From NCBI RefSeq assembly GCF_032464895.1, contig NZ_JAWDIC010000002.1, forward strand, positions 186,001 through 250,000: 64,000 nt of DNA, written 5' to 3'. Positions within the stretch are counted from its first letter, which is position 1, and the number at the start of each line of letters is the position of its first letter. Shown in pieces: positions 1-63,581 of the stretch. Made by a program: the position numbers and the translations under genes. The notes under the pieces were generated by a model that searched no databases, was not told the DNA's origin, and saw nothing but the letters and a program-made list of their open reading frames with translations. This DNA comes from Phycicoccus sp. M110.8. Lineage in GTDB: Bacteria > Actinomycetota > Actinomycetes > Actinomycetales > Dermatophilaceae.

Positions 1-223
1 CCGCGGTGGACTGCAGCGCCTGCAACGCCTCCTGCGAGGTGCCGGCGGTGGCCGCCACCTCGAACCCGGGGACCCGCACGACGTATGCCGCGTGGGCCTC
101 GAGCGCGACCGGCTCGTCCTCGACGACGAGGACCCGGAGGACGTCCGGCGCCGGCCGCCCGGCGGCCGGAGGGGGGTCGGCCGCGGGCCGGCGGCCGGGC
201 ACGGGCGGTCGCTGGTCAGGCAT
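1..223 (-). CDS. Response regulator, DcuR/CitB (DpiA)-like, N-terminal fragment
   Basis: This is the N-terminal part of a response regulator; the rest lies beyond the left edge of the window. After a Pro-rich leader of about 28 residues it shows the start of a receiver domain, LRVLVVEDEPVALEAH, including the acidic pair that binds Mg2+. The phospho-acceptor Asp and the output domain are not in the window. Its ATG start overlaps the last eight bases of the upstream sensor kinase gene, so the two are translationally coupled and form a cognate pair. By analogy with CitA/CitB and DcuS/DcuR systems it probably controls C4-dicarboxylate or citrate uptake, and the divergent dctA gene is the obvious target. 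The pairing is clear; the ligand and the regulated genes are inferred. Confidence 0.85.
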   Translation of the reverse strand, partial: MPDQRPPVPGRRPAADPPPAAGRPAPDVLRVLVVEDEPVALEAHAAYVVRVPGFEVAATAGTSQEALQALQSTA

Positions 224-1820
224 CGGCGTGCTCCTGCACGGGCAGCCGGACGACGAACCGGGCGCCGGGCGGCCCGGAGACCTCGAGGCGTCCCCCGAGC
301 CGGGCCACCGACTGGGCCACGAGCGCCAGGCCGATCCCCCGCCGGCCGGCGCTGCCCTCCTCCTTGGTCGTGAAGCCGCGCCGGAACGCGTCGTCGACCG
401 AGCCGGGCGGCAGGCCGGGCCCGGTGTCCTCCACGACGAGGACGACCTCGTCGCCCTCGGCCCGGCAGTCGACGGTGACGCGGCGCGGCCCGTCGGTGCC
501 GGCCACCGCCTCGAACGCGTTGTCGATGAGGTTGCCCACGATCGTGACGAGGTCGCGGTCGGGCGCGGCCTGGGCCGGCCACTGGGCGCCGTCGGCGATG
601 ACGAGCTCGATGCCGCTCTGGCTCGCCTGGGCCACCTTGCCGAGCAGCAGCGCCGTCAGCACCGGCTCGGACACGGCGCCGACGACGGCGTCGGTGAGCC
701 CCTGGGAGACGCGCAGCTCGTCGGTCGCGAACGCGAGCGCGCGCTCGGGGTGGCCGAGCTCGATGAGGCTGACGATGGCGTGCAGCCGGTTCGCCGACTC
801 GTGCGCCTGCGAGCGCAGCGCCTCGGTGAGTCCGCGGGCGGAGTCGAGCTCACCGGTGAGGTGCTCGAGGTCGGTGCGGTCGCGCAGGGTGACGACGAAG
901 CCCAGCAGCCGGCCGTCCCACTGTGCCCGCGCCTTGTTGAGCACGAGCACGCGCGCGTCGGTCACGTGCAGCTCGTCCTCACGCGCCCGGTCGTCGGTGA
1001 GCGCGGCGACCAGGGTGTCGGGCAGCCCGAGCTCCGGCACGCGGCGGCCCACCGCGTCGGGCGGCAGGCCCAGCAGCCGCACGGCCTCGTCGTTGGCTAG
1101 CCGCAGGGTGCCGTCGAGGTCGACCAGCAGGAGCCCCTCGGTGACCGCGTGCAGGACGGCGTCGTAGTACTCGACCATCTGGCGCAGCTGCCGCTCGCCC
1201 AGCCCGTGGGTCTGGCGGCGGACCCGTCGGGACACCAGGGCCGTGCCGAGGCCGGTGAGCAGGGCTGCCGCGAGGCCAGCGAGGAGGATGCCGGGCAGCT
1301 GGCTGCGCAGCTCGGCCGTCACCGCGGACTTGCGGATGCCCACGGCGACGAGCCCGACGACCGCGCCTCCGTCCTCGACGGGCACCACGACCCGGCGGGA
1401 CGGGCCCAGGGTGCCGGTGTAGTCCTCCACCACCACGCCGCCGCGCTGCGCGGCCTCGATGTGGCCGATGAAGCGGCGGCCGATCTGGCTGGTGTCGGGG
1501 TGGGTGAAGCGGATGCCGTCCGGGCTCATCACGACGACGAAGTCGGTGCGGGTCTCGACGCGGGCCTCCTCGGCGAACCGCTGCAGGCTCGAGGAGTCAC
1601 CCGCCCGCACGCCGGCGACGACGTCGGGGCTGCTCGCCACCGTCTCGGCGACCGCCCGGGCCCGCGCGGTGGCCTCCTGGGTGCTCGCGCGCCCGGCCTG
1701 GACGTACCCGGCGGCGACACCGACCACCACGACCAGCAGCCCGACGAGGACCTGCAGCACGAACACCTGCCGGGCCACGCTCCACCGCGCCGGCGCGCGC
1801 AGCAGGCGCGTCAGCGGCAT
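216..1820 (-). CDS. Sensor histidine kinase, DcuS/CitA (DpiB) family
   Basis: This 534-residue membrane sensor kinase phosphorylates the adjacent response regulator. A first transmembrane helix (about residues 18-40) is followed by an extracytoplasmic sensor domain of about 135 residues, a second helix (about 178-200), a cytoplasmic PAS domain (about 215-320) and a kinase core. The phospho-acceptor box reads SQAHESANRLHAI, the SpoOB/CitA-type H-box. The ATPase domain shows the N-box NLIDNAFEAV, a DTGPGLP G1 box and RGIGLALV. The arrangement and length match CitA/DcuS sensors for di- and tricarboxylates. It is transcribed divergently from dctA, 119 bp away. The ATG start lies inside a copy of the dispersed octamer GTATGCCG. 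Ligand identity (succinate, fumarate or citrate) cannot be read from the sequence. Confidence 0.9.
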   Translation of the reverse strand: MPLTRLLRAPARWSVARQVFVLQVLVGLLVVVVGVAAGYVQAGRASTQEATARARAVAETVASSPDVVAGVRAGDSSSLQRFAEEARVETRTDFVVVMSPDGIRFTHPDTSQIGRRFIGHIEAAQRGGVVVEDYTGTLGPSRRVVVPVEDGGAVVGLVAVGIRKSAVTAELRSQLPGILLAGLAAALLTGLGTALVSRRVRRQTHGLGERQLRQMVEYYDAVLHAVTEGLLLVDLDGTLRLANDEAVRLLGLPPDAVGRRVPELGLPDTLVAALTDDRAREDELHVTDARVLVLNKARAQWDGRLLGFVVTLRDRTDLEHLTGELDSARGLTEALRSQAHESANRLHAIVSLIELGHPERALAFATDELRVSQGLTDAVVGAVSEPVLTALLLGKVAQASQSGIELVIADGAQWPAQAAPDRDLVTIVGNLIDNAFEAVAGTDGPRRVTVDCRAEGDEVVLVVEDTGPGLPPGSVDDAFRRGFTTKEEGSAGRRGIGLALVAQSVARLGGRLEVSGPPGARFVVRLPVQEHADA

Positions 1821-1939
1821 ACTCCACCGCCGTCGGGGAACTCAATGAACACAATCGTGACCCTAGCCACTCGCCGGGGCCACCATCGTCGCTGTTCGCC
1901 ATCCCGGGACGTCCCGGGATCCACAGCTGGGAGAGCACA
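1821..1939. promoter_or_regulatory. Divergent promoter region, sensor kinase / dctA
   Basis: This 119-bp spacer separates the sensor kinase and dctA starts. It contains a relatively AT-rich patch around 1841-1866, unusual for this sequence, which probably carries one or both promoters and possibly the regulator site. Just before dctA a purine-rich stretch (gggagag) about eight bases from the GTG is a plausible ribosome binding site. No clear operator palindrome could be assigned. Confidence 0.4.
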
Positions 1940-3334
1940 GTGAGCACAGCCGCCGACACCGTCGTCGACCGGCCCGCACCGAAGCGGGACCGCACGCACT
2001 ACCTCTACCTCGCGGTCATCGCCGCGATGGTCCTGGGCATCATCGTCGGGTTCGCCTTCCCCGAGTTCGGCATCAAGCTGAAGTGGCTGGGCACCGGCTT
2101 CGTCAGCCTCATCAAGATGATGATCACCCCCATCATCTTCTGCACCATCGTCCTGGGCATCGGCTCGGTGCGCCGCGCCGCCCAGGTCGGCAAGGTCGGC
2201 GGCCTGGCCCTCGGCTACTTCCTCACCATGTCGACCTTCGCGCTGGCGATCGGCCTCGTGGTCGGCAACATCGTCAAGCCCGGCTCCGGCCTGCACCTCA
2301 CCGCCGAGCTGGCCAAGGCCGGCCAGGCGCAGGTGGGCGACAAGAGCGAGACCACGGTCGACTTCATCCTCGGCCTCATCCCCGACACGCTCGTGTCGTC
2401 GCTCACGGCCGGGTCGGTCCTGCAGGCGCTGTTCGTGGCCCTGCTCGTCGGGTTCGCGCTGCAGAAGATGGGCCGCGCCGGTGAGCCGATCCTGGTGGGC
2501 ATCAAGCACTTCGAGCGGCTCGTCTTCCGCCTGATGGCGATGGTCATGTATGCCGCGCCGATCGGCGCGTTCGGCGCCATGGCCGCGCTCGTGGGCGCGA
2601 CCGGCACCAAGGGACTGACCAGCGTGCTGAAGATGATGTTCGGGTTCTACGTGACGTGCGCCGTGTTCGTCTTCGTGGTCCTCGGCGCGGTCCTGTACCT
2701 CGCGACCCGGGTCAACATCTTCAGGCTGCTGAAGTACCTGGCACGCGAGTTCCTGCTCATCCTGTCGACGTCCTCGTCGGAGTCGGCCCTGCCGCGGCTC
2801 ATCGCGAAGATGGAGCACGCCGGCGTGTCCCGCCCGGTGGTCGGCATCACCGTGCCGACCGGGTACTCGTTCAACCTCGACGGCACGGCCATCTACCTGA
2901 CGATGGCGTCGCTGTTCGTCGCCGAGGCGCTGGACAAGCCGTTCACGTTCGGCCAGCAGATCTCGCTGCTGGTGTTCATGATCATCGCGTCCAAGGGTGC
3001 GGCCGGCGTCAGCGGCGCCGGCCTGGCCACCCTGGCCGGTGGCCTGCAGGCGCACCGGCCCGACCTGGTCCCGGGCGTGGGCATCATCGTCGGCATCGAC
3101 CGGATGATGAGCGAGGCGCGGGCGCTGACCAACTTCGCGGGCAACTCCGTCGCCACGGTCCTCATCGGCCACTGGGTCGGCGAGCTCGACCGGCCGCGCC
3201 TGGACCGCGTCCTCGCCGGCGACCTGCCGTTCGACGAGCGGACCATGGTCGACCACGAGGACGAGGAGCCGGTCACCGACGTCGCGCAGGAGCGCACGGC
3301 GGCGCTGCCGCAGCCGGTGGGCCCCGCTCGCTGA
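1940..3334 (+). CDS. dctA: C4-dicarboxylate/cation symporter DctA
   Basis: A 464-residue member of the DAACS (dicarboxylate/amino acid:cation symporter) family, importing succinate, fumarate or malate with protons or Na+. It carries the family hallmarks: an N-terminal set of hydrophobic helices with KMMITPIIFCTIVLGI, the Ser-rich re-entrant loop STSSSESALPRL, GYSFNLDGTAIYLTMASLF with the substrate-site region, the second hairpin SKGAAGVSGAGLATLAGGL, and RALTNFAGNSVATVLIG near the end. Length agrees with DctA (about 420-450) plus a short charged N-terminus and a hydrophilic C-terminal tail. The GTG start was chosen for its upstream purine-rich site and because translation then enters the first helix properly. 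The divergent CitA/DcuS-type kinase supports dicarboxylates over amino acids as substrate. Confidence 0.93.
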   Translation: MSTAADTVVDRPAPKRDRTHYLYLAVIAAMVLGIIVGFAFPEFGIKLKWLGTGFVSLIKMMITPIIFCTIVLGIGSVRRAAQVGKVGGLALGYFLTMSTFALAIGLVVGNIVKPGSGLHLTAELAKAGQAQVGDKSETTVDFILGLIPDTLVSSLTAGSVLQALFVALLVGFALQKMGRAGEPILVGIKHFERLVFRLMAMVMYAAPIGAFGAMAALVGATGTKGLTSVLKMMFGFYVTCAVFVFVVLGAVLYLATRVNIFRLLKYLAREFLLILSTSSSESALPRLIAKMEHAGVSRPVVGITVPTGYSFNLDGTAIYLTMASLFVAEALDKPFTFGQQISLLVFMIIASKGAAGVSGAGLATLAGGLQAHRPDLVPGVGIIVGIDRMMSEARALTNFAGNSVATVLIGHWVGELDRPRLDRVLAGDLPFDERTMVDHEDEEPVTDVAQERTAALPQPVGPAR

Positions 3335-4722: not shown

Positions 4723-4779
4723 GCGCGCCGAGGGCCGCGGTCCCGCCCGGGACGGGTCCGGACGGCATACGGTCGGCAC

Positions 4780-6264: not shown

Positions 6265-8049
6265 ATGCGAACCCCCTCCCCCACGCGCCGCACCCGGCGC
6301 CTGCTGCCGCCCGCCCTGGTCGGCCTGCTCACCGCCGTCCTCGGCGCCGCCGGACTGGCCGTCGGCACCGCCCCGGCGCACGCCGTCACCGACGCTCCGC
6401 ACTGCTCGACCTCGGGCACCTGGACCCCCGGCGAGTTCAACATCTACTGGTTCGACGTCGACCAGGGCGACAGCCAGCTCGTCGTCGGGCCGACCGGCCG
6501 GACCCTGCTCGTCGACCTCGGCGAGACCTCGTTCAACACCACCGGCACCAACACCAACGCCACCAAGGTCGCCGCGCAGATCCGCTCGATCTGCGGCATC
6601 GCCTCCGGCCCCGTCCACCTCGACTACGTCATGGCCTCCCACCACCACCTCGACCACATCGGGTACCCGCGCGTCCCGGGTGACACCACGGCATACGGCA
6701 ACGGGCTGTGGCAGCTCCTCGCGCCAGCGGCCAGCGGCGGGTTCGGCTTCACGGTCGGCCAGCTGATCGACCACGACGGCGGCACCTGGCAGGACAGCAA
6801 CGGAGACGGGACGTGCGAACCCGGCACCTCCACGGCCCCCTCGACCGAGATCAGGTACGACAACGCCGGGACGACCTCCGGCACGGGCGCCCGCTTCATC
6901 TGCTGGCTCTACGGGCCCGCGGCCCAGGCCGACCGCGCCGACATCAACGGCAAGGTCGTCCAGCTGACCAACACCTCCACCTGGCCGTCCCTCGACCTCG
7001 GGACCGGGGTGACCTCGACCATCGTCGAGGCCAACGCCAAGGGCGTCATGCAGGCCGACGGCACCACGCCGGTCAGCGGTGACCACCACCTCGATGCCTC
7101 CCCGCCGAGCGAGAACGACTACTCGATCGGCGTGCGGTTCGCCTTCGGGCCGTTCGCCTACGCGACCGCCGGCGACAGCGACGGCGAGTACGCCACCAGC
7201 GCGAACAGCTACACCTACAACGACGTCGAGTCGCTGCTGAAGACGAAGATGGGCACGGTCAACGCGCTGCGCGCCAACCACCACGGGTCGGCGCACTCGT
7301 CCTCGGACGGCTACGTCACCTCGACCGACCCGCAGGTCGCCTTCATCTCCTGCGGCGTCAACTCCTACGGCCACCCCGGCAACCGCACGCTCGACGCGTT
7401 CCGCACAGTCGGCGCCGACATCTTCCTCGCGAACGACCCGTGCGACACCACGGACACGACCGGGGCCGCGATCGACTACACGGGCACCTACAACCACAAC
7501 GGGACCGTGCACCTGGCGACCTCGGGCTCGGGCGCCGGCTTCACCGTCGCCTACGACGCGGGCACCCGCAGCTACACGACCCGCGCCAGCAGCGGGACCG
7601 GTGGCACCGGTGGCACCGGGGGCACCGGCGGATCCCCGTCCGCGGTCAAGGTCAACGAGATCCTCATGGCCCCGAGCGGCACGGGCACCGAGTGGGTCGA
7701 GCTCTACAACACCGGCACGTCGGCGGTCGACCTGAGCGGCCTGTACATTGACGACGCCGCCGGGGGTGGCGGGTCGCCGCGACAGATCCCGGCCGGCACG
7801 ACGATCGCGGCCGGCGGACACTGGGTCATGGACATCCCGTCGGGCTACCTCAACAACACAGGCGCGGAGTCGGCGCGGTTCCTGGCGATCAGCGGCGGCG
7901 TCGAGACGGTCTACGACACCTACAGCTGGAGCCTGGGCTCGACCCAGTACGACAAGGTGTTCCACCGCACAGGCGACGGCGGGGCCTGGTGCGGCACCAT
8001 CTCCAGCGCGGTGACCAAGGGCACCGCGAACCCGACGACGTGCCCGTGA
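6265..8049 (+). CDS. Secreted metallo-beta-lactamase-fold hydrolase with C-terminal lamin-tail domain
   Basis: A 594-residue secreted protein. Residues 1-38 form a signal peptide ending near APAHA. The main domain resembles the ComEC/Rec2-type metallo-beta-lactamase module: FDVDQGDSQLVVGPTGRTLL, then the metal motif HHHLDH (H126, H128, D130, H131), and later metal-ligand candidates in the ANHHGSAHSSSDGYV region. A Gly-Thr linker (about residues 443-453, from 9-base repeats) leads to a lamin-tail-like immunoglobulin-fold domain beginning VKVNEILMAPSG and containing EWVELYNTGTSAVDLSG. Such pairs occur in secreted nucleases, so phosphodiesterase or nuclease activity outside the cell is a reasonable inference. 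The stop overlaps the start of the next gene. Confidence 0.85.
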   Translation: MRTPSPTRRTRRLLPPALVGLLTAVLGAAGLAVGTAPAHAVTDAPHCSTSGTWTPGEFNIYWFDVDQGDSQLVVGPTGRTLLVDLGETSFNTTGTNTNATKVAAQIRSICGIASGPVHLDYVMASHHHLDHIGYPRVPGDTTAYGNGLWQLLAPAASGGFGFTVGQLIDHDGGTWQDSNGDGTCEPGTSTAPSTEIRYDNAGTTSGTGARFICWLYGPAAQADRADINGKVVQLTNTSTWPSLDLGTGVTSTIVEANAKGVMQADGTTPVSGDHHLDASPPSENDYSIGVRFAFGPFAYATAGDSDGEYATSANSYTYNDVESLLKTKMGTVNALRANHHGSAHSSSDGYVTSTDPQVAFISCGVNSYGHPGNRTLDAFRTVGADIFLANDPCDTTDTTGAAIDYTGTYNHNGTVHLATSGSGAGFTVAYDAGTRSYTTRASSGTGGTGGTGGTGGSPSAVKVNEILMAPSGTGTEWVELYNTGTSAVDLSGLYIDDAAGGGGSPRQIPAGTTIAAGGHWVMDIPSGYLNNTGAESARFLAISGGVETVYDTYSWSLGSTQYDKVFHRTGDGGAWCGTISSAVTKGTANPTTCP

Positions 8050-8633
8050 GCCGGCTCCGCGGCGGCGTCGTCGCAGCCGGGGTGGGCGCCGTGCTGCTGC
8101 TCGGGTATGCCGGGCACGCACTCTCCGGGGCGGCGCCCGCCACCGCCGCGGTAGGGTCCGCGGCGCAGCCGACCCGCCCCGCCATGGACCGGCTGGTCCT
8201 GGTCAGCGGCCGGGACGACCACGGGCTGGTCGAGCTGGCGTCGGTCCCCCTGACCGACCGTGCCGGCCGCGGCGCGGTCGTGGGCACGGTCCCGGACGGC
8301 ACGCTGGCCCGGCCGACCCGGGTGCTCGGCACCCAGGTGGAGGTCACGAGCCTCGACAGGACGGGCGTCACCGGCTGGGTCGACGACTACCGGCTGCGTG
8401 GTGAGCTCCGGGCGGCCGGGGCGGGCGATCCGTGCACCGGTGACCAGGTCGTCGCCACGCGCGTCGCCGGGTCGCGGGTGCTCGTGCACGCCCTGGACGG
8501 GAGCCGGCCCCGGTGGGTGGCCCGCTCGGCGCTGGCCGAGGTGGTCTCGGCGGCCACGTGTGCGGGCGGACCCGCCGGGTCCGACCACGGCTCGCCCGGG
8601 TCCGACCACGGCTCGCCGGGGCACCGCCACTAG
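8046..8633 (+). CDS. Hypothetical exported or membrane-anchored protein
   Basis: A 195-residue protein I do not recognise. It starts with GTG inside the stop of the preceding gene (GTGA overlap), so it is co-translated with the metallo-beta-lactamase/lamin-tail protein. Residues 1-35 form a hydrophobic signal or anchor (GGVVAAGVGAVLLLGYAGHA). The remainder has a short repeated layout, with VPLTDRAGRGAVVGTVPDGT and VEVTSLDRTGVTGWVDDYRL, that is reminiscent of SH3-like cell-wall binding modules. There are two cysteines, one each in GDPCTGDQ and AATCAGG. The C-terminus carries two copies of GSDHGSP and ends in His residues, possibly metal binding. Role as a partner of the upstream hydrolase is inferred from coupling only. 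Confidence 0.6.
   Translation: MSRLRGGVVAAGVGAVLLLGYAGHALSGAAPATAAVGSAAQPTRPAMDRLVLVSGRDDHGLVELASVPLTDRAGRGAVVGTVPDGTLARPTRVLGTQVEVTSLDRTGVTGWVDDYRLRGELRAAGAGDPCTGDQVVATRVAGSRVLVHALDGSRPRWVARSALAEVVSAATCAGGPAGSDHGSPGSDHGSPGHRH
8577..8618 (+). repeat. 21-bp tandem duplication in the 3' end of the exported-protein gene
   Basis: Two copies (20 of 21 bases identical) of a unit beginning gggtccgaccacggctcgcc. They encode the duplicated GSDHGSP tail. Confidence 0.85.
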
Positions 8634-8718: not shown

Positions 8719-10566
8719 TCAGCCGGTCGTGGCCGCCCCGTAGATGTCCTGGTCGAGACCGCCCGCGTTGGGGCAGGTGTCGGCCGACCAGGTGCCCGAG
8801 GCGTCCTGCGTGCGGCACTGCAGCACGTCGAAGCCCGTACCTCCCGCGTACCGCGGGTCGTCGCCACCGGCGACCTGACGCGTGTCGGTCCAGGTGTTGT
8901 AGGCGTTGGCGCCCACGGACGACACGTAGTTGTAGTCGCCGTGGAAGGGCACGCGCCGGTCACCGAACATCTCGTAGTTCGGCATCTGGCTGGTCGTGCT
9001 CAGCCGCGTCACCGACCAGGTGGCGCCACCGTCGCGCGATGACGCGGCATACGTGTCCAGACCGGGTGTGGCGGCGGCGAAGCCCGCGGAGTCGCGGACG
9101 GCGCCGTTGTTCCCGGGCGGGTACTGGACGCTGTAGGCGGGGTCGTTGCGGCTGTCGTGCCAGACCGCGTGCAGCACTCCCCCGTCGGCGTTGACGTCGG
9201 GGAAGAGCTGGTGGCCGGTCGGCGTGGGTGCCAGGCGTGCCGGCGTGGACCAGTGGCCGTTGTCGAGGACGGAGAAGTAGATCGCGCCCTGCCCGACCCG
9301 CAGCGTCGACCCGGCCGGGTCGGCGGTGTTGTAGGTCGTGGCCGACGGCACCTCGGACCCGGGGACCGTGGCGTCGTAGACGAGGTAGACCCGCTGGTCG
9401 GCAGCCTTGGGGTCGGCCGTGATCCGCGGCTGGCTGTCGTGCCGGAAGAACACGAAGCCGCTCGTGCACGCGAACGGGCCCGAGCCGCAGTCACGGCTGT
9501 CGCCGACCGACGCCTCGCCGGCCTCGGCGGCCGGCCCGTCGGCGTGCTGGTAGGCCTGCTCGTGCGCAGCGGCCGCTGCGGTCGGGTTGCCCGCGGTGTC
9601 GGCTGCGTCGAACGGCTCGAACGGCGTCGCGACCTGGGGCTTGCCGAAGGTGGCGCCGCCGTCGGTCGAGACGACGTACGCGACCGCGTTCTCCTGGTGC
9701 CCGCGAGAGCTGTCGAACTGCCGGTAGGCGATGTACACCGTGCCGTTGCTCGTCACCGCGATGTCGGCGAACTGGACGTTCTTCGACCCGACAGACAGCT
9801 TGGCCGGCTGGGTGAAGGTGGCGCCGTGGTCGGTGCTGCGCGTGAAGTAGATGGCGTTGTTGCCGTTGATCCCCTGGAAGAGCGACCACGCGGCGTAGAC
9901 GTTCCCGTTGTGGGGCGAGGAGACGCCGCGGTCGACCTCGATGGAGGTCTTGTCGTTGAACCGGCCGTTGAGCGCGGGGCCGGCCTTGCCGACGATGACG
10001 GTGCGCACGTAGTGGGTGGCGTCCTGGTCGTACGTGGCGACCCACACCGAGCCGTTCTGCGGCGAGACGCGGTTGAACGCGTTGCCCATGTAGAACAACC
10101 GGCCCGAGGTGTCCCAGGCCTGCACCGGGTCACCGGCGTTGGTGATGCCCTGCTGCTGCAGCGGGCTCGCCTTCCCCTCGGGCGACTGGTCGGTCGGGTA
10201 GCCGGGCAGCAGGCTGTCGGTCCACGTGCGACCCGAGTCGGTGCTGCGGTAGAAGCCGGCCCACGTGCCACCGGCGAGCTCGACGGTGCAGTAGTCGTTG
10301 GACCCGGCCACGACCACGTCCGTCATGCGCGCGTCGATGGCGGTCGAGGGCTCGTTCTGCTGGCGCCGGTTGGCGCCGCAGGCTGTGATGGCGTCGCCGG
10401 GTGTGGGGACCCGGCCGTTCGCCTTGACGTATGCCGCGTCGACCGTGACGGGCACGTCCGTGACCGTCACGGTGGACGCCGAGGCCGCCAGGAACGACGA
10501 CGCCCCGGCGAGGGCGGCGACCGTCAGCCCTGCGGCGGCGGCTGCTCGGGTGCGGTGGTGGCGCAT
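8719..10566 (-). CDS. Secreted BNR/Asp-box repeat protein (sialidase-like propeller)
   Basis: A 615-residue secreted protein. The ATG chosen is preceded by GGAAGGGAGAG and opens a clear signal peptide (MRHHRTRAAAAAGLTVAALA, cleaved after about residue 30). The mature part contains several Asp-box motifs of the S-x-D-x-G-x-T-W type: STDSGRTW, STDHGATF, STDGGATF and SRDGGATW. These mark a sialidase-type beta-propeller. Pairs of Cys residues near ITACG, RDCGSG and FACTSG suggest disulfides. I cannot identify the Arg triad or the nucleophilic Tyr of true sialidases with confidence, so enzymatic activity is uncertain; many such proteins are uncharacterised exo-alpha-sialidase-like binders. It is convergent with the hydrolase pair and divergent from the cytochrome module. 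Confidence 0.8.
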   Translation of the reverse strand: MRHHRTRAAAAAGLTVAALAGASSFLAASASTVTVTDVPVTVDAAYVKANGRVPTPGDAITACGANRRQQNEPSTAIDARMTDVVVAGSNDYCTVELAGGTWAGFYRSTDSGRTWTDSLLPGYPTDQSPEGKASPLQQQGITNAGDPVQAWDTSGRLFYMGNAFNRVSPQNGSVWVATYDQDATHYVRTVIVGKAGPALNGRFNDKTSIEVDRGVSSPHNGNVYAAWSLFQGINGNNAIYFTRSTDHGATFTQPAKLSVGSKNVQFADIAVTSNGTVYIAYRQFDSSRGHQENAVAYVVSTDGGATFGKPQVATPFEPFDAADTAGNPTAAAAAHEQAYQHADGPAAEAGEASVGDSRDCGSGPFACTSGFVFFRHDSQPRITADPKAADQRVYLVYDATVPGSEVPSATTYNTADPAGSTLRVGQGAIYFSVLDNGHWSTPARLAPTPTGHQLFPDVNADGGVLHAVWHDSRNDPAYSVQYPPGNNGAVRDSAGFAAATPGLDTYAASSRDGGATWSVTRLSTTSQMPNYEMFGDRRVPFHGDYNYVSSVGANAYNTWTDTRQVAGGDDPRYAGGTGFDVLQCRTQDASGTWSADTCPNAGGLDQDIYGAATTG

Positions 10567-14292: not shown

Positions 14293-16246
<1,954 letters not shown>

Positions 16247-16269
<23 letters not shown>

Positions 16270-49740: not shown

Positions 49741-50946
49741 CTAGGCGGTCGCCGCCGCGAGTTGGCCGCAGGCCCCGTCGATGTCCTGTCCCCGCGTGTC
49801 CCGGATCGTCGTCGGGACGCCGTGGGCGCGCAGCCGCTCGACGAACTGCTGCTCCACCCCGGGGCGGGACGCCGTCCACTTCGACCCGGGCGTCGGGTTG
49901 AGCGGGATCGGGTTGACGTGCACCCAGCCGCGGCCGCGCGCGGCGAGCTTCTCGCCGAGCAGGTCGGCGCGCCACGCCTGGTCGTTGATGTCGCGGATCA
50001 GCGCGTACTCGATGCTGACGCGGCGGCCGGTCGTCTCGTAGTAGCGGTGGGCGGCGTCGAGGGCCTCGTCGACCTTCCACCGGGTGTTGATCGGCACCAG
50101 CTCGTTGCGCAGCTCGTCGTCAGGGGCGTGCAGCGACAGGGCCAGCGTGACGGGGATGCCCTCGCCGGCCAGCTTGTCGATGGCCGGCACGAGCCCCACG
50201 GTCGACATCGTGATCCCGCGAGCCGACATGCCCAGCCCCTCCGGGGCCGGGTCGGTCATGCGGCGGATCGCGCCGATCGCGGCCTTGTAGTTGGCCAGCG
50301 CCTCACCCATGCCCATGAACACGACGTTCGAGATCCGGGTGGGGCCGGCGACCTCGGCCGGACCGTCCTCGTCGCCCAGCTCGGCCCCCTCGGAGGTGCC
50401 CACGCTGGGAGCCAGGTCGCCGCGGCGCAGCTGCCGCGCGGCATACACGACCTGCTCGACGATCTCCGCGACCGACATGTTGCGCGTGAGGCCGGCCTGT
50501 CCGGTGGCGCAGAACGGGCAGTTCATGCCGCACCCGGCCTGGCTGGAGATGCAGATGGTGACCCGGCGCGGGTAGCGCATGAGCACCGACTCGACGATCG
50601 CGCCGTCGTGCAGACGCCACGCCGACTTGATGGTGGCGCCGTCGTCGGCCGTGCGCTGGACCAGCGGGGTGAGCAGGGGCGGCAGCAGGTCGCGGACGAG
50701 GTCGTCGCGGATCGCCTTGGGCAGGTCGGTCATCTCCTCGGGCGACTCCACGAGCCGCTCGAAGTAGTGGGTCGACAGCTGCTTGGCGCGGAAGCCCTTG
50801 TGGCCGAGGGCCTCGACGGCCTCCTTGCGCTCGGCCGGCGTGAGGTCGGCCAGGTGGCGCGGCGGCTTGCCCCGGCGGGGCGCCGAGAAGGTCAGCTGAC
50901 CCGGGCGCGGGCGCTCGGTCGTGGGCTCGGGCAGGTCGGTGGTCAC
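49741..50946 (-). CDS. rlmN: 23S rRNA/tRNA (adenine-C2) methyltransferase
   Basis: A 401-residue radical-SAM enzyme that methylates A2503 of 23S rRNA and A37 of some tRNAs. The cluster motif is [11 protein letters not shown] (C-x3-C-x2-C) and the second catalytic Cys is near the end in DGACGQL. An acidic insertion ([20 protein letters not shown]) interrupts the region before [13 protein letters not shown], and this is common in actinobacteria. The GTG start overlaps the cdsA stop (GTGA). The frr-cdsA-rlmN order is conserved. Confidence 0.95.
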
Positions 50947-54075: not shown

Positions 54076-56037
54076 ATGAGGTCTGGAATCCTGCCCGGTC
54101 ACCGCGACGAGTCCGTCCGCCCCCAGGACGACCTGTTCCGGCACGCCAACGGCACCTGGGTCGCCCAGACCGAGATCCCCGGCGACCGCGGCCGGTACGG
54201 CACCTTCGACATGCTCCGCGAGCAGTCCGACGAGCGCGTGCGCCGGCTCATCGAGCGTGCGGCAGCCGACACGACCGCCGAGCCGGGCTCGGCGACCCGC
54301 AAGGTGGGCGACCTCTACAACTCCTTCATGGACGAGGCCCGCGTCGAGGAGCTCGGCCTCGAGCCGGTCCGCGAGCACCTCGAGCTGATCGGCAAGACCA
54401 CCGGGACGGACGAGCTGTTCCGCACCATGGGCCGCCTGCAGCGGATCGGCGTCCCCGGCCTGCTCAACATGGGTGTCGCCCCCGACGCCAAGAACCCGGA
54501 CGAGTACATCGTCTACCTCGGCCAGGGCGGTCTCGGGCTGCCCGACGAGTCGTACTACCGCGAGGAGCGGCACGCGGCCGTCCGCGAGGCGTACCTGCCG
54601 TTCGTCGCCAAGCTCCTGTCGATGGCGGGCATCGGCGACGGCTCCACGGGCGAGGGGTCCCCCGCCGCCGCGGTGGTCGCGCTGGAGACCAAGATCGCCA
54701 AGCACCACTGGGACAACGTGGCGACCCGTGACGCGGTCAAGACGTACAACCCGTACAACTTCTACGACCTCGAGGAGCTCGCGCCCGACGTCATGTGGGT
54801 CGACTGGGCGCGTGGCCTGAGGGCCCGCGACGCCGTCGAGGACGTCATCGTCGGCGAGCCCAGCTTCCTCGAGGGCGTCTCCGTCCTGCTGGACGAGGAG
54901 CTGATCGACCACTGGGCGTGGTGGCAGAGCTTCCACCTGCTGCGCTGGGCCGCTCCCCTGCTGAGCAAGGAGTGGGTCGACACCGAGTTCGACTTCACCG
55001 GCCGGGTCATCTCCGGGCTGCCGCAGAACCGCGAGCGGTGGAAGCGCGGCGTGTCCCTCGTCGAGGGCGCGATCGGCGAGGCCGTGGGCCAGCTGTATGC
55101 CGCGGAGTTCTTCCCGCCGGCCGCCAAGGAGCGGATGCTCGAGCTCGTCGGCAACCTCGTCGAGGCGTTCCGGCGCTCCTTCGAGGGGCTGGACTGGATG
55201 GGCCCCGAGACCCGGGCGCAGGCGCTGGAGAAGCTCGCGGCCTTCACCCCGAAGGTGGGCTACCCCGACCGCTGGCGGGACTACTCCTCGCTCGTCATCG
55301 ACGACGACCTGTTCGGGAACGTGCTCCGGGCGGCGGAGTTCGAGTTCCAGCGCCAGCTCGACAAGCTCGGCGGTCCCATCGACCGCGACGAGTGGCTGAT
55401 GCTGCCCCAGACGGTCAACGCGTACTACCACCCGCTCATGAACGAGATCGTCTTCCCCGCCGGCATCCTGCAGCCGCCGTTCTTCGACCTCGAGGCCGAC
55501 GACGCTGTCAACTACGGCGGCATCGGCGCGGTCATCGGGCACGAGATCGGCCACGGCTTCGACGACCAGGGCTCGCGCTACGACGCCAAGGGCGCCCTGC
55601 GCGACTGGTGGACCGAGGAGGACCGCAAGCGGTTCGACGAGCGCACCCAGGCGCTCATCGCCCAGTTCGACGAGCTGTCCCCGCTGGCCGCCCCGGACGA
55701 GAAGGTCAACGGCGCCCTCACCGTCGGCGAGAACATCGGCGACCTCGGGGGCCTCGCGATCGGCTACGCGGCATACCGCATCGCCACCGAGGGCCAGGAC
55801 GTGCCGGAGCTCGACGGGTACAACGGGCCCCAGCGGTTCTTCCTCGGCTGGGCACAGGTCTGGTCCGGCAAGGCGCGCCCGGAGGAGGCGAAGCGGCTGC
55901 TCGCGGTCGACCCGCACTCCCCCACCGAGGTGCGGGCCAACGCCGTGCGCAACTGCGACGAGTTCCACGAGGCGTTCGGCGTCACCGAGGGCGACGGGAT
56001 GTGGCTGGCGCCCCAGGACCGGGTGCACATCTTCTGA
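54076..56037 (+). CDS. M13-family zinc metallopeptidase (neprilysin/PepO-like)
   Basis: A 653-residue endopeptidase without a signal peptide, so probably cytosolic. The zinc motif HEIGH (H489, E490, H493) is followed by the third-ligand motif GENIGDLGGLAIGY, and the NAYYHPLMNEIVFPAGIL substrate-binding stretch precedes them. Length matches bacterial PepO. A gaaggag site lies upstream of the ATG. It degrades peptides of moderate size. Confidence 0.93.
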   Translation: MRSGILPGHRDESVRPQDDLFRHANGTWVAQTEIPGDRGRYGTFDMLREQSDERVRRLIERAAADTTAEPGSATRKVGDLYNSFMDEARVEELGLEPVREHLELIGKTTGTDELFRTMGRLQRIGVPGLLNMGVAPDAKNPDEYIVYLGQGGLGLPDESYYREERHAAVREAYLPFVAKLLSMAGIGDGSTGEGSPAAAVVALETKIAKHHWDNVATRDAVKTYNPYNFYDLEELAPDVMWVDWARGLRARDAVEDVIVGEPSFLEGVSVLLDEELIDHWAWWQSFHLLRWAAPLLSKEWVDTEFDFTGRVISGLPQNRERWKRGVSLVEGAIGEAVGQLYAAEFFPPAAKERMLELVGNLVEAFRRSFEGLDWMGPETRAQALEKLAAFTPKVGYPDRWRDYSSLVIDDDLFGNVLRAAEFEFQRQLDKLGGPIDRDEWLMLPQTVNAYYHPLMNEIVFPAGILQPPFFDLEADDAVNYGGIGAVIGHEIGHGFDDQGSRYDAKGALRDWWTEEDRKRFDERTQALIAQFDELSPLAAPDEKVNGALTVGENIGDLGGLAIGYAAYRIATEGQDVPELDGYNGPQRFFLGWAQVWSGKARPEEAKRLLAVDPHSPTEVRANAVRNCDEFHEAFGVTEGDGMWLAPQDRVHIF

Positions 56038-56792: not shown

Positions 56793-56809
56793 GACGTGAG
56801 TATGCCGCG

Positions 56810-56851
56810 TGCGCGCCGGTCCCGTGCCGGTCCCGCGGCACACCGGCATAC
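56810..56851. repeat. Inverted pair of GTATGCCG octamers
   Basis: GTATGCCG (56810-56817) and CGGCATAC (56844-56851) face each other across 26 bases in the spacer before the tsf terminator. The flanking gtg/cac bases allow a few more pairs. Confidence 0.7.
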
Positions 56852-56910: not shown

Positions 56911-57741
56911 TCAGTTGTTGCCGACGCGGTAGCGCGCGAAGGACGACACGGACGCGCCGGCCTCCTCGAGCACCTTGGCGACGGTCTTCTTGGCGTCCTT
57001 GGCGAACGCCTGCTCGAGCAGGACGTTCTCCTTGAAGAAGCCGTTGACGCGACCCTCGACGATCTTCGGGAGGGCGGCCTCGGGCTTGCCCTCCTCCTTC
57101 GCGGTGGCCTCGGCGACGCGACGCTCGTTCTCGACCGTCTCGGCCGGGACCTCGTCACGGGTCAGCACGGTGGGGCTGAACGCGGCGATGTGCATCGCGA
57201 CGTCGCGGATGACGGCCTCGTCACCCTCGCCACCGACCAGGACGCCGATCTGCGCGGGCAGGTCGGGGCTGGTCTTGTGCAGGTAGGACACGACGACCGG
57301 GGCCTCGACGCGGGCAACGCGCTTGACCTCGATCTTCTCGCCGATGGTGGCGTTGGCGCCGTCGAGCAGGTCCTGGACGGTCGAGCCGTCCTCGAGGGTG
57401 CTCTTGAGCAGCGCGTCGGCGTCGGCCGCGCCAGAGGCGACGGCCTGGGCGAGGACCTGGTCGGCGAGGGCGATGAACTTCTCGCCCTTGGCGACGAAGT
57501 CGGTCTCGCACAGGACCTCGACGAGGGTGCCCGCGCCGCCCTCGGCCTTGGCGGTGACCAGGCCGTTGGACGTGGTGCGCCCCTCGCGCTTGGTGACGCC
57601 CTTGAGGCCCTTGACGCGCAGGATCTCGGTGGCCTTGTCGCGGTCGCCGTCGGCCTCGTCGAGCGCCTTCTTGACGTCGAGCATGCCGGCGCCGGTGGAC
57701 TCGCGCAGGGCCTTGATGTCAGCGGCGGTGTAGTTCGCCAT
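56911..57741 (-). CDS. tsf: Elongation factor Ts
   Basis: A 276-residue GDP-exchange factor for EF-Tu. The N-terminal UBA-like helix reads ADIKALRESTGAGMLDVKKA and the core has VEVLCETDFVAKGEKF. Length and Ala-rich composition match actinobacterial EF-Ts. It follows rpsB by 41 bases, the usual rpsB-tsf operon, but the normal downstream pyrH is 3.6 kb away here. Confidence 0.97.
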   Translation of the reverse strand: MANYTAADIKALRESTGAGMLDVKKALDEADGDRDKATEILRVKGLKGVTKREGRTTSNGLVTAKAEGGAGTLVEVLCETDFVAKGEKFIALADQVLAQAVASGAADADALLKSTLEDGSTVQDLLDGANATIGEKIEVKRVARVEAPVVVSYLHKTSPDLPAQIGVLVGGEGDEAVIRDVAMHIAAFSPTVLTRDEVPAETVENERRVAEATAKEEGKPEAALPKIVEGRVNGFFKENVLLEQAFAKDAKKTVAKVLEEAGASVSSFARYRVGNN

Positions 57742-58944: not shown

Positions 58945-60195
58945 GTGACCGCCCTGCCCCGCCTCCTCCACCGCGCCACGGAGTGGGCGGTCCCGGCGCG
59001 GATGGGGACGGCGTTCCGGTGGAACCTCGCCTCGTCGTGGGTGGGCCAGCTCGGGGACGGCATCGCCCTGGCCGCCGGTCCCCTGCTCGTCGCCTCCCTC
59101 ACCCGCGACCCCACGCTGATCGCCGCGGCCGCGATGGTCCAGAACGTGCCGACCCTCCTGCTGGGCCTGTATGCCGGTGCCGTCGCCGACCGGGTCGACC
59201 GCCGTCGCCTCGTGCTCGGGGCCAACCTCGTGCGCGTCGCCGTCCTCGCGGTGCTCGTGGTCACCATCGTCACGGGGACGGTGTCGATCGGGCTGCTGCT
59301 CGGGACGCTGTTCGCGGTCGGTGTGGCCGAGCTGTTCGCCGACACCGGCTGGCGCGCGGTGCTGCCGATGATCGTGCCCAAGGACGACCTCGGCATCGGC
59401 AACGCCCGGCAGATGTCCGGGTTCCTCGTGGCCAACCAGTTCGTGGGGCCGGCGGTCGGGGCGAGCCTGTTCGCGCTCGGTTCGGCGGTGCCGTTCGGGG
59501 TGCAGGGGGCGGCGCTGCTGCTGGCGGCGGCGCTGTTCGCCAAGGTGCGCCTGCCGCGGGCAGAGGACACCGAGCGGCCGGAGCAGCACATCGGCCACGA
59601 CATCCTCGACGGCCTGCGGTGGATCGCGGGCAACGCGCCGATCCGCACCCTCACCCTGGTGATCTTCATCTTCAACGTCACCTGGGGAGCCCCGTGGGGC
59701 GTGCTTGTCTACTGGGCCCAGGAGCGGCTGCACGTCGGGGCGGTCGGGTTCGGGCTGCTCACGACGTGCTCTGCCATCGGCGGCGTGACCTCGGTGCTGC
59801 TCTACGACCGGCTCGAGCGGCGCGTCCCCCTGGCCCGGCTGATGCGGATCTGCCTGTCGCTGGAGGTGCTGACCCACCTGGCGCTCGCGCTCACCACGGT
59901 GCCGTGGGTGGCGATGGCGATCATGGTGGTGTTCGGCGGCTACGCGTTCGTGTGGGGGTCGCTGTCGTCGGCGGTGCGGCAGCGGGCGACGCCGAACGAG
60001 TACCAGGGGCGGGTCGGGAGCGTCTACTGGGTCGGCCTGATCGTGGGGCTGCTGGTGGGCCAGTTCCTCGGGGGGCAGATCGCCGACCGGTTCGGGGCGG
60101 CGGCGCCGTTCTGGTTCGCGTTCGCCGGGGCCGGCCTGACCCTGGTGGTGGTCTGGCGCCAGCTCGACCACATCGCCCACGCCGACGCGGCATAG
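58945..60195 (+). CDS. MFS transporter
   Basis: A 416-residue major facilitator protein with about twelve helices. The loop between helices 2 and 3 has GAVADRVDRRRLVLGANLVR, matching the MFS signature (G-x3-D-R-x-x-R-R). It resembles drug-efflux-type members (LAASSWVGQLGDGIALAAGP-like start). A second GTG six bases earlier is an alternative start. Substrate is unknown. Confidence 0.85.
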   Translation: MTALPRLLHRATEWAVPARMGTAFRWNLASSWVGQLGDGIALAAGPLLVASLTRDPTLIAAAAMVQNVPTLLLGLYAGAVADRVDRRRLVLGANLVRVAVLAVLVVTIVTGTVSIGLLLGTLFAVGVAELFADTGWRAVLPMIVPKDDLGIGNARQMSGFLVANQFVGPAVGASLFALGSAVPFGVQGAALLLAAALFAKVRLPRAEDTERPEQHIGHDILDGLRWIAGNAPIRTLTLVIFIFNVTWGAPWGVLVYWAQERLHVGAVGFGLLTTCSAIGGVTSVLLYDRLERRVPLARLMRICLSLEVLTHLALALTTVPWVAMAIMVVFGGYAFVWGSLSSAVRQRATPNEYQGRVGSVYWVGLIVGLLVGQFLGGQIADRFGAAAPFWFAFAGAGLTLVVVWRQLDHIAHADAA

Positions 60196-60432: not shown

Positions 60433-60795
60433 TCACCCTGCGGCAGCGTCGACGGCGGCCTGGACCTCGGGGGCGAGGTGCCCGGCATACCGGCGCTGGA
60501 GCTCGGGGATCCGCCAGTCCTCGCCGGTGACCATCTGGCGGCACCGGTAGGTCTCGCAGTGGCACCGCACGAGCATCCCGGGGTCCGTCGTCGTCGTCGC
60601 GTAGTCGACGGTCAGCTCCTCCCCCGCAGCCACGTCGCGGAAGGCGACCAGCCGACCGCCGGCCCAGGTGAGCGTGGGGTCGCACGAGTGGTTGAGCAGG
60701 TCTGGGTCCACCTCGAGGGCCGCCCCGGCCGGCAGCGGCTGCGTCGTGAACAGCCCACGGCCGGCGATGGCGGACGCACGGCGCTCGACGGGCAT
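60433..60795 (-). CDS. Minimal SET-domain protein (putative protein lysine methyltransferase)
   Basis: A 120-residue protein consisting of little more than a SET domain: AIAGRGLFTTQPLPAGAALE, then LLNHSCDPTLTW (the NHS motif of the AdoMet site), GEELTVDYATTT (the catalytic Tyr region) and a post-SET-like Cys cluster CHCETYRCRQMV. The domain seems shortened between its N-terminal strand and NHSC, where the I-SET region would be. Histone-like or ribosomal substrates are possible. Confidence 0.78.
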   Translation of the reverse strand: MPVERRASAIAGRGLFTTQPLPAGAALEVDPDLLNHSCDPTLTWAGGRLVAFRDVAAGEELTVDYATTTTDPGMLVRCHCETYRCRQMVTGEDWRIPELQRRYAGHLAPEVQAAVDAAAG

Positions 60796-62248: not shown

Positions 62249-62274
62249 ACCTCATGCTGGCACGGCGGCGCCGT

Positions 62275-62393
62275 GGCGGGAACCGCCAGACGTCCGGGGT
62301 GACGAGACCGGCGCGGCGGGAACCCGCGGGCCTCCGGCGTGGCGGGAACCGGCAGGCCTCCGGCGTGACGGGAACCGGCGCGCCCGCAGGGGT
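62275..62393. repeat. Tandem 26-bp-type repeats in the divergent promoter region
   Basis: Four imperfect units with the core ggcgggaaccggcaggcctc and cggcgt; 62315-62340 and 62341-62366 are the best pair, 62275 onward and 62367 onward are degenerate. They fill most of the 163-bp spacer between two divergent genes and could be regulator binding sites or a simple expansion. Confidence 0.7.
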
Positions 62394-62411
62394 GACGGCT
62401 AGCCTGCGCAG

Positions 62412-63581
62412 ATGGGTAGTCCGCTGGTCGCGCGCATGCAGGGGTTCGGCTCGACCATCTTCGCGGAGATGACCGCGCTGGCGACGGAGCGCGGTGCGGT
62501 GAACCTCGGCCAGGGCTTCCCCGACACCGACGGTCCGCGCGCGATGCTCGACGCCGCCAAGGCCGCGATCGACGCCGGCCGCAACCAGTACCCGCCCGGC
62601 CCCGGCGTGCCCGAGCTGCTGGAAGCCGTTGCGGCACACCAGAAACGCTTCTACGGCATGGACCTCGACCCGCGCCGCGAGGTGCTCGTCACCGTCGGCG
62701 CGACCGAGGCGATCGCCGCGACGATCCTCGCCCTGTGCGAACCGGGCGACGAGGTCGTGACGTTCGAGCCCTACTACGACTCGTATGCCGCGTCGATCGC
62801 CCTCGCGGGCGCGGTGCGGCGGACGTCGGTGCTGCGCTTTCCCGACTTCGCCGTCGACGAGGCGTCGCTGCGCGCGGCCTTCTCCTCGCGGACCCGGCTG
62901 GTGCTGCTCAACACGCCGCACAACCCGACCGGCAAGGTGTTCAGCCGCGAGGAGCTCGAGCTCGTCTGTGCCCTCGCGCGCGAGCACGACGCGTGGGTCG
63001 TCACCGACGAGGTGTACGAGCACCTCGTGTTCGACGGGGTCGAGCACGTGCCGGTCGCGACGCTGCCGGGCATGTGGGACCGGACGCTGACCATCTCCTC
63101 GGCCGGCAAGACGTTCTCGGCGACCGGCTGGAAGGTGGGCTGGGTCAGCGGGCCGGCCGAGGCGGTGGCTGCGGTGCGGGCCGTGAAGCAGTTCCTCACG
63201 TTCGTCGGCTCGGGACCGTTCCAGCCGGCCGTCGCCGTGGCGCTGGGCCTCGGCGACGACGTGTATGCCGGGCTGGCCTCGTCGCTGCAGGCCAAGCGGG
63301 ACCTGCTCGTGGCCGGGCTGCGCGGGGCCGGGTTGGAGGTCTCGGTGCCGGCGGGGACGTACTTCGTCGTGGCCGACGCGGCGCCGCTGGGGGCGGTGGA
63401 CGCCCTGGAGTTCTGCCGCGAGCTGCCGGGCCGGGCGGGTGTCGTGGGCGTGCCGGTGTCGGTGTTCCACGACGACGTCGACGCCGCGCGGACCTTGGTG
63501 CGCTTCGCGTTCTGCAAGCGCGACGAGGTGCTGCAGGAGGCGGTGGGCCGCCTGGGCACCCTGAGGACCTCGGCCGGCTGA
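62412..63581 (+). CDS. Aminotransferase class I/II, DapC-like
   Basis: A 389-residue PLP enzyme very like mycobacterial DapC (N-succinyldiaminopimelate aminotransferase) and kynurenine-aminotransferase relatives. It has AVNLGQGFPDTDGP, NQYPPGPGVPELLEAVA, LLNTPHNPTGKVFS and the PLP-Lys in ISSAGKTFSATGWKVGW. A role in lysine/peptidoglycan precursor synthesis is the best guess, though some relatives act on other amino acids. No strong ribosome site is visible before the ATG. Confidence 0.83.
   Translation: MGSPLVARMQGFGSTIFAEMTALATERGAVNLGQGFPDTDGPRAMLDAAKAAIDAGRNQYPPGPGVPELLEAVAAHQKRFYGMDLDPRREVLVTVGATEAIAATILALCEPGDEVVTFEPYYDSYAASIALAGAVRRTSVLRFPDFAVDEASLRAAFSSRTRLVLLNTPHNPTGKVFSREELELVCALAREHDAWVVTDEVYEHLVFDGVEHVPVATLPGMWDRTLTISSAGKTFSATGWKVGWVSGPAEAVAAVRAVKQFLTFVGSGPFQPAVAVALGLGDDVYAGLASSLQAKRDLLVAGLRGAGLEVSVPAGTYFVVADAAPLGAVDALEFCRELPGRAGVVGVPVSVFHDDVDAARTLVRFAFCKRDEVLQEAVGRLGTLRTSAG

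What the first reader, a model, noticed from the sequence alone, without database searches (positions are those of the whole stretch)
83..63270. A highly iterated octamer, GTATGCCG, about once per 1.6 kb
I count 40 exact copies, 21 in one orientation and 19 in the other, where a rough base-composition estimate gives about two. The word forces otherwise rare codons: most TAT (Tyr) codons I noticed lie in TATGCC, and it also brings GCA (Ala-Tyr as GCATAC) and an ATA (in the PotA-like gene), in different reading frames and also in spacers. The DNA word, not the protein, therefore appears to be maintained. Density and strand balance recall DNA-uptake sequences of Neisseria/Pasteurellaceae or cyanobacterial HIP1, and do not fit strand-biased KOPS/Chi. 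I know of no description for actinobacteria.
Basis: partly seen in the sequence, partly recalled or inferred. Interest (0 to 1): 0.9.

Follow-up and report, generated by a model that had tools for sequence, protein, structure and literature searches.

The report
DNA-uptake-like watermark word in Knoellia
Many actinobacteria of one family carry a short DNA word thousands of times, with variant 'dialects' in some genera, much like the tags by which Neisseria and Haemophilus recognise and take up their own kin's DNA; whether it works that way here still has to be tested.

Summary
GTATGCCG occurs 40 times in the window (0.8 expected) and 2,476 times in the 4.12-Mb genome, 1,234 on one strand and 1,242 on the other; the reversed word occurs 135 times. 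The genus is Knoellia by LeuS identity. Proteins and codon usage do not explain it: 181 coding copies on contig C2 against 13.7 in synonymous shuffles. Positions are conserved: 65 of 85 intact in five motif-rich relatives, control octamers 16-21%. At least 500 copies occur in 105 of 186 family genomes; none of 291 genomes of 19 sister families exceeds 177. Some genera carry dialects: GGATGCCG or GAATGCCG, perhaps others. Inverted pairs form hairpins, after gene ends on C2, and in other dialects from their own word. Two foreign-looking stretches are nearly free of it. These are hallmarks of Neisseriaceae DNA uptake sequences. Best explanation: a DUS-like self-recognition word used with the ComEA/ComEC/Tad machinery encoded here. 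Uptake was not tested and the reader protein was not found: ComEC, ComEA, Tad and RecC do not track the word.

The parts
83..90 (+). GTATGCCG copy, opposite strand to gene -529..202(-)
   Evidence: context
1815..1822 (-). GTATGCCG copy at gene start 216..1820(-)
   Evidence: context
2548..2555 (+). GTATGCCG copy, Tyr-Ala frame of gene 1940..3334(+)
   Evidence: context
4763..4770 (-). GTATGCCG copy, intergenic
   Evidence: context
6689..6696 (-). GTATGCCG copy, Ala-Tyr (GCATAC) frame of gene 6265..8049(+)
   Evidence: context
8105..8112 (+). GTATGCCG copy in gene 8040..8633(+)
   Evidence: context
9045..9052 (-). GTATGCCG copy in gene 8719..10566(-)
   Evidence: context
10429..10436 (+). GTATGCCG copy in gene 8719..10566(-)
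   Evidence: context
14276..14283 (-). GTATGCCG copy, intergenic
   Evidence: context
14430..14437 (+). GTATGCCG copy in gene 14293..16269(+)
   Evidence: context
16190..16197 (-). GTATGCCG copy in gene 14293..16269(+)
   Evidence: context
16910..16917 (+). GTATGCCG copy in gene 16892..17677(-)
   Evidence: context
17564..17571 (-). GTATGCCG copy in gene 16892..17677(-)
   Evidence: context
18995..19002 (-). GTATGCCG copy in gene 18234..19664(-)
   Evidence: context
21667..21674 (+). GTATGCCG copy in gene 21217..21987(-)
   Evidence: context
23081..23088 (-). GTATGCCG copy in gene 21984..23804(-)
   Evidence: context
23823..23830 (+). GTATGCCG copy, intergenic
   Evidence: context
26091..26098 (+). 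GTATGCCG copy in gene 25779..26624(-)
   Evidence: context
27892..27899 (-). GTATGCCG copy at gene start 26755..27897(-); inverted partner at 27930
27930..27937 (+). GTATGCCG copy, intergenic; inverted partner of 27892
28044..28051 (-). GTATGCCG copy in gene 27967..29334(-)
   Evidence: context
30354..30361 (+). GTATGCCG copy in gene 29331..30620(-)
   Evidence: context
31058..31065 (-). GTATGCCG copy, intergenic
   Evidence: context
34795..34802 (-). GTATGCCG copy in gene 33776..34882(-)
   Evidence: context
38222..38229 (+). GTATGCCG copy in gene 37941..39035(-)
   Evidence: context
41724..41731 (-). GTATGCCG copy in gene 40432..41880(-)
   Evidence: context
44047..44054 (+). GTATGCCG copy in gene 44006..45460(+)
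   Evidence: context
45996..46003 (-). GTATGCCG copy in gene 45899..47026(+)
   Evidence: context
46174..46181 (+). GTATGCCG copy in gene 45899..47026(+)
   Evidence: context
48287..48294 (+). GTATGCCG copy in gene 48120..48509(+)
   Evidence: context
49547..49554 (+). GTATGCCG copy in gene 49260..49733(+)
   Evidence: context
50439..50446 (-). GTATGCCG copy in gene 49741..50946(-)
   Evidence: context
55095..55102 (+). GTATGCCG copy in gene 54076..56037(+)
   Evidence: context
55769..55776 (-). GTATGCCG copy in gene 54076..56037(+)
   Evidence: context
56800..56851 (.). Intergenic inverted pair (two copies: 56800-56807 + and 56844-56851 -), an imperfect hairpin 59 bases after the end of gene 56911..57741(-)
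59169..59176 (+). GTATGCCG copy in gene 58945..60195(+)
   Evidence: context
60483..60490 (-). GTATGCCG copy in gene 60433..60795(-)
   Evidence: context
62783..62790 (+). GTATGCCG copy in gene 62436..63581(+)
   Evidence: context
63263..63270 (+). GTATGCCG copy in gene 62436..63581(+)
   Evidence: context

Best explanation
GTATGCCG is a DNA-uptake-sequence-like watermark. I propose that an unidentified sequence-reading component of the cell-surface DNA uptake machinery (Tad/Flp pili plus ComEA and ComEC) prefers DNA that carries the word, in either orientation. Repeated transformation and recombination between kin would then spread and preserve the word in the core genome, as proposed for Neisseriaceae and Pasteurellaceae. 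SHOWN: genome-wide, strand-balanced, DNA-level maintenance; conserved positions; dialects; inverted pairs of the local dialect's own word; scarcity in two foreign-looking stretches; presence of ComEA, ComEC and Tad genes.
For: Genome counts 1234/1242 against control 74/61. Locally balanced strands, 113+/116- on C2 and near-equal in each 50-kb bin. Synonymous-shuffle null 13.7 (sd 3.4, max 22 of 100 shuffles) against 181 observed. Positions intact in 65 of 85 comparisons with five motif-rich relatives against 16-21% of control octamers; 23 of 65 in four motif-poor relatives. Dialects: GGATGCCG at 2,099-4,480 copies in seven genomes of g9, g15 and g51; GAATGCCG 3,135 in G047 and 730 in G046; G036, G037, G046 and G047 hold two dialects. 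Humibacillus (GG) falls inside a 100/100 LeuS clade with GTATGCCG genera. Inverted pairs of the local dialect's own word. Scarcity: 4 copies in 49.3 kb of an island where about 30 are expected; the longest copy-free gap of C2 is a 61.5%-GC stretch. ComEC in 180 of 186 genomes; ComEA-type HHH_3 and TadE each in 80 of 80. Abundance, dialects, two dialects in one genome, inverted pairs and low density in islands are all described for Neisseriaceae (passages of PMC3630211, and PMC7371117).
Against: No uptake data. No gene tested tracks the word: PilM-type T4aP is nearly absent (7 of 186); ComEC, ComEA, Tad-type ATPases and TadE are present in word-rich and word-free genomes alike. The hairpin excess on C2 alone is modest: 3 perfect-stem intergenic pairs, a level reached by 3 of 402 comparable octamers, the word included; 2 of the 7 close +- pairs do not form such stems. 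The second- and third-longest gaps on C2 (8.0 and 6.7 kb, 73% and 70% GC) hold ordinary-looking genes, among them a principal sigma factor by eye. Spacing is only slightly more even than random (variance/mean 0.70-0.80). Whether any Knoellia is naturally competent is not known to me.
Confidence: 0.65

Rival explanations
1. A Chi-like word: an octamer that tells a RecBCD/AddAB/AdnAB-type nuclease-helicase to stop degrading self DNA and start recombination.
For: Right length, non-palindromic, genome-wide, scarce in an island. Chi words differ between taxa (recalled).
Against: No strand bias in any 50-kb bin of C2, whereas known Chi sites are oriented with replication (recalled). RecC is absent from the own genome and does not track the word: 16 of 45 genomes with at least 300 copies and 19 of 35 others have it (the 'others' include two GG-dialect genomes, G017 and G178). 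Inverted-pair hairpins have no role in Chi. AdnAB was not tested.
Confidence: 0.12
2. A HIP1-like repeat kept by methylation or biased repair rather than by uptake.
For: Dense, strand-symmetric, in coding and spacer DNA.
Against: The word is not a palindrome; it exists as single-base dialects and in inverted pairs. In motif-poor relatives the commonest changes are T4 to C, C7 to A or G and T4 to G, so decay follows no single mutational route.
Confidence: 0.12
3. A binding site of a nucleoid, segregation or cell-division protein spread over the chromosome.
For: Genome-wide, near-random spacing.
Against: Would not obviously explain scarcity in an island, two dialects in one genome or the inverted pairs. 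Direction-reading systems such as KOPS are excluded by the strand balance.
Confidence: 0.08
4. A by-product of codon or dipeptide usage.
For: Most coding copies read Tyr-Ala or Ala-Tyr.
Against: Synonymous shuffles keep proteins and codon usage and give 13.7 instead of 181; YA and AY dipeptides are 332 and 297 against 283.5 expected; 45 copies are intergenic.
Confidence: 0.01

Closest known systems
DNA uptake sequence (DUS) of Neisseriaceae, read by the minor pilin ComP
   Same: Thousands of copies, single-base dialects between genera, two dialects in a genome, inverted pairs associated with terminators, sharp drop in genomic islands (passages of PMC3630211 and PMC7371117).
   Different: 8-mer instead of 10-12-mer; high-GC Gram-positive actinobacteria; PilM-type type IVa pilus nearly absent, Tad/Flp pili instead; no reader identified; uptake not shown. 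The shared letters ATGCCG are taken as coincidence.
Uptake signal sequence (USS) of Pasteurellaceae
   Same: Abundant word with two dialects (passages of PMC12616744).
   Different: Different sequence and phylum (recalled), different pilus type.
Flp/Tad-pilus competence of Micrococcus luteus
   Same: Actinobacterial uptake with Flp pili, ComEA and ComEC (passages of PMC6370729); such genes are encoded here.
   Different: No uptake word was mentioned for M. luteus in the passages I saw.
HIP1 of cyanobacteria
   Same: Dense octamer of unknown reader (recalled).
   Different: HIP1 is palindromic (recalled); this word is not.
Chi sites
   Same: Octamer, taxon-specific (recalled).
   Different: Strand balanced here; RecC absent from the own genome.

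Membership tests
DUS/USS uptake words | Short word far above expectation across the whole genome, both strands | tested here: met
   2,476 copies, 1234/1242; control 135
DUS/USS uptake words | Kept at DNA level, not by protein or codon usage | tested here: met
   181 against 13.7 in synonymous shuffles; positional conservation
DUS/USS uptake words | Related dialects in related genera | tested here: met
   GTATGCCG, GGATGCCG, GAATGCCG counted in 186 genomes; GTATGCGG in a 40-kb sample
DUS/USS uptake words | Inverted pairs as terminator-like hairpins | tested here: met
   place after gene ends checked on C2 only; the C2 excess is modest; termination not tested
DUS/USS uptake words | Depleted in horizontally acquired islands | tested here: met
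   4 copies in 49.3 kb, about 30 expected; a 13.8-kb low-GC gap without copies, picked because it is the longest gap. One genome only
DUS/USS uptake words | Host encodes ComEA, ComEC and a DNA-uptake pilus | tested here: met
   ComEA, ComEC and Tad genes found; that the Tad pilus takes up DNA here is inferred from M. luteus
DUS/USS uptake words | Type IVa pilus with a ComP- or ComN-like minor pilin reader | tested here: not met
   PilM_2 in 7 of 186 genomes and not in the own genome; ComP/ComN homologues were not searched for as such
DUS/USS uptake words | Word-bearing DNA is preferentially taken up | not testable with these tools
   Needs an uptake assay
Chi | Orientation bias relative to replication | tested here: not met
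   113+/116- on C2, near-equal in each 50-kb bin; origin and terminus were not located
Chi | Cognate RecBCD/AddAB/AdnAB | tested here: inconclusive
   RecC absent from the own genome and not correlated; AdnAB not tested
KOPS | Strand-biased toward the terminus | tested here: not met
HIP1 | Palindromic octamer | tested here: not met
   GTATGCCG is not self-complementary (sequence; HIP1 definition recalled)

The most novel reading that the evidence does not exclude
A third, independently evolved self-DNA recognition system for natural transformation, the first in Gram-positive bacteria. It would be read by a Tad/Flp-pilus or ComEA-side component rather than a type IVa minor pilin, with at least three whole-genome dialects within one actinobacterial family, and with one Tad locus of the own genome now invaded by a nearly word-free island.
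Probability: 0.6. Interest if true: 0.95.

Novelty: new variant of a known kind. Interest (0 to 1): 0.88.

Why it matters
[quoted passage not shown] A third case in another phylum, with a different pilus, would show that uptake words arise convergently, would point to natural transformation as a common force in these actinobacteria, and would give genetic tools (tag DNA with the word).

Tried and rejected
Codon or dipeptide artefact: rejected by synonymous shuffling. RecBCD-Chi: RecC does not track the word. Type IVa pilus reader: PilM_2 nearly absent. ComEC, ComEA-type HHH_3, Tad-type ATPase and TadE as presence/absence reader: near-universal, so uninformative. Tad locus 2 in 19 genomes: no Tad gene of the K. 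koreensis locus is confined to word-rich genomes; single genes are missing from my gene calls in both groups. Another word in the motif-poor G138, G143, G144 and G147: none, their top words are still GTATGCCG or octamers overlapping it. GTACGCCG in g3, g7 and g35: raised but not sharp, since CGTACGCC rises with it, and G090 has no close pairs; undecided. GTACGGCG in G084: raised, one clear hairpin, but only third in the codon-aware null (37 against 12.4); undecided. CGAAGGGG in Janibacter (G093), weaker in G053, and CGATGCGG in G083 are stronger but less similar words; whether they are the same system is open. Samples of G001, G008, G010, G019, G021, G022, G038, G096, G099, G153, G160 and G183 showed no word standing out from its neighbours; for G010, G019, G022 and G038 my gene caller covered little of the sample (9-26 kb of 40), so the codon-aware test there is weak. 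G184 shows a set of overlapping raised octamers outside my gene calls, not examined. Seven other families sampled at 40 kb: the highest scores are palindromes (G191, G205), but G205 also has GGATGCCT and CGGATGCC raised (z about 8); GGATGCCG itself is not sharp there, and this was not followed further. Two more fetched samples were too short and not used (G189, G200). G146 and G137 were fetched but not used in the position comparison.
Full report
OBSERVATION. The window holds 40 exact copies of GTATGCCG, 21 on + and 19 on - (0.81 expected, maximum 4 in 100 dinucleotide shuffles). It is the top octamer of the window and of contig C2, which I read in full (229 copies, third-order Markov expectation 10.7). 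The genome has 4,117,279 bases in 7 contigs and 1,234 + 1,242 copies, against 74 + 61 of the reversed control word. The best LeuS matches are Knoellia remsis and K. koreensis (89-90%), so the genus is almost surely Knoellia; the species was not identified.

THE WORD IS HELD AT THE DNA LEVEL. Of the 229 copies on C2, 108 read as Tyr-Ala, 52 as Ala-Tyr on the other strand, 21 in other frames, 45 are intergenic and 3 overlap a gene end; 12.5% of C2 is intergenic by my gene calls. Shuffling synonymous codons within genes, which keeps every protein and each gene's codon usage, gives 13.7 copies (sd 3.4, maximum 22 of 100) against 181. 114 of 134 TAT codons are in TAT-GCC. The word is sharp: at five of its eight positions 95-99% of words that match the other seven letters are the word itself.

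POSITIONS ARE CONSERVED. I aligned a 50-kb part of C2 with nine unnamed relatives at 77-80% nucleotide identity. In five motif-rich relatives 65 of 85 covered copies are intact (12/16, 12/15, 10/15, 18/22, 13/17) against 16-21% of control octamers at fixed offsets. In four motif-poor relatives 23 of 65 are intact (5/18, 7/18, 5/15, 6/14; controls 15-17%), and their top words are still GTATGCCG or octamers overlapping it. These data fit active maintenance in some species and decay in others.

DISTRIBUTION AND DIALECTS. Of 186 family genomes in 53 genera, 105 (30 genera) have at least 500 copies (median 1,746), 65 have at most 120 and 16 lie between; three genera (g4, g33, g42) contain both rich and poor genomes. 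Of 291 genomes of 19 other families of the order none exceeds 177 copies, and that one has 135 of the control word. GGATGCCG replaces it in G017 and G018 (g9), G034 and G035 (g15) and G178 (g51), at 3,619-4,480 copies; G036 and G037 hold 2,195 and 2,099 plus 1,217 and 1,189 of GTATGCCG. Elsewhere GGATGCCG is a commoner word, with a background up to about 1,340. GAATGCCG has 3,135 copies in G047 beside 1,025 GTATGCCG, and 730 in G046 beside 2,311; G049 has 388, hardly above the highest background of 352. Named loci agree: Knoellia, Terrabacter, Terracoccus and Intrasporangium oryzae have GTATGCCG as top word, I. calvum has 6 copies, Pedococcus 5, Humibacillus GGATGCCG, and a Phycicoccus MAG GAATGCCG plus GTATGCCG. 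On a LeuS tree Humibacillus falls in a 100/100 clade with Intrasporangium, Terrabacter and Terracoccus; the branching order inside is less sure (88/93 for I. calvum outside the rest). The simplest reading is a T-to-G switch within a GTATGCCG lineage. Samples suggest further words: GTATGCGG in G025 (18 against 1.0), CGATGCGG in G083 (54 against 12.9 in coding DNA) and CGAAGGGG in Janibacter (33 against 5.0 in coding DNA). Their kinship to the main word is less certain.

HAIRPINS. Of seven close +- pairs on C2 (at most 100 bases), four intergenic ones form long stems: three lie 22-27 bases after the end of a called gene and one overlaps a called gene end. A fifth, the window's pair at 56800/56844, is imperfect, and two (one inside a gene) are not such stems. 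In other genomes inverted pairs are built from the local word: GGATGCCG in G034 and G178, GAATGCCG in G047, GTATGCGG twice in G025, CGAAGGGG in G093 and G053, GTACGGCG in G084 (complementarity seen by eye, position relative to genes not checked there). As a control on C2 the excess is modest: 3 perfect-stem intergenic pairs, a level reached by 3 of 402 octamers of similar abundance, this one included; the other two are G+C-only words. [quoted passage not shown]

ISLANDS. In contig C1 the second Tad locus breaks off inside tadA, and the next 49.3 kb (the far end was not reached) looks like an inserted island at about 69% GC; it holds 4 copies where about 30 are expected at the genome's density. 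That it is an insertion is my inference from the gene calls and the truncated Tad match. It carries a TerB-domain protein, a helicase with an exonuclease domain and an RHS-repeat protein (Pfam). On C2 the longest copy-free gap, 13.8 kb, is also the one at 61.5% GC with a conjugation-type ATPase by eye; it was picked for being the longest. The next two gaps (8.0 and 6.7 kb) have 73% and 70% GC and ordinary-looking genes. Drastic drops of DUS density in islands are described for Neisseria (passage of PMC7371117).

MACHINERY AND READER. ComEC (C2:126347-128704) and ComEA (C2:128701-129354, SLBB and HHH_3) are adjacent, and a Tad locus with two Flp pilins lies beside a ComF-like gene. Micrococcus luteus, another actinobacterium, transforms with Flp pili, ComEA and ComEC (passages of PMC6370729). 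None of the families tested separates word-rich from word-poor genomes: PilM 7 of 186, ComEC 180 of 186, RecC 16 of 45 against 19 of 35, Tad-type ATPase, HHH_3 and TadE each 80 of 80. In Neisseriaceae, too, five genomes lacked an obvious DUS (passage of PMC3630211).

INTERPRETATION. Local strand balance, single-base dialects, genomes with two dialects, inverted pairs, scarcity in an island and restriction of this word to one family together match uptake words better than Chi, KOPS, HIP1 or a nucleoid site. I put 0.65 on a DUS-like function. As a family member it fails the type IVa pilus criterion as far as tested, and the uptake criterion is untested, so the claim is 'works like a DUS', not 'is a DUS'. 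I saw no report of it: ten paper searches in an open-access library, some with capped lists, gave none; a 2025 paper names only two families with such words (passage of PMC12616744). Papers were seen as search listings or passages, none in full.

Noticed in passing
own genome C1 about 2163187 to beyond 2212500 (L224:10687 onward, L260, L261): A stretch of more than 49 kb, probably an island, follows a cut-short tadA of the conserved second Tad locus; it carries a TerB-domain protein, a DEAD helicase with an exonuclease domain and an RHS-repeat protein.
   Followed up: partly
C2:380756-380843 (end of contig, outside the window): Runs of 37 and 50 C at the contig end, probably an assembly artefact; they inflate poly-C octamers in contig statistics.
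   Followed up: yes
window, 5 copies of GGTGCGCACC: The palindrome GGTGCGCACC/GTGCGCAC is moderately over-represented here and in G053; possibly a general actinobacterial word.
   Followed up: no
   Followed up: partly
G191 and G205 (other families), L249-L250 and L258-L259: Palindromes CACCGGTG and GACCGGTC, and in G205 also GGATGCCT and CGGATGCC, are raised above a codon-aware null.
   Followed up: no
G184 (g53), L050-L051: Overlapping raised octamers (CGCACCTA, ACCTACTC, AGTAGGTG and others), probably one longer repeat family.
   Followed up: no
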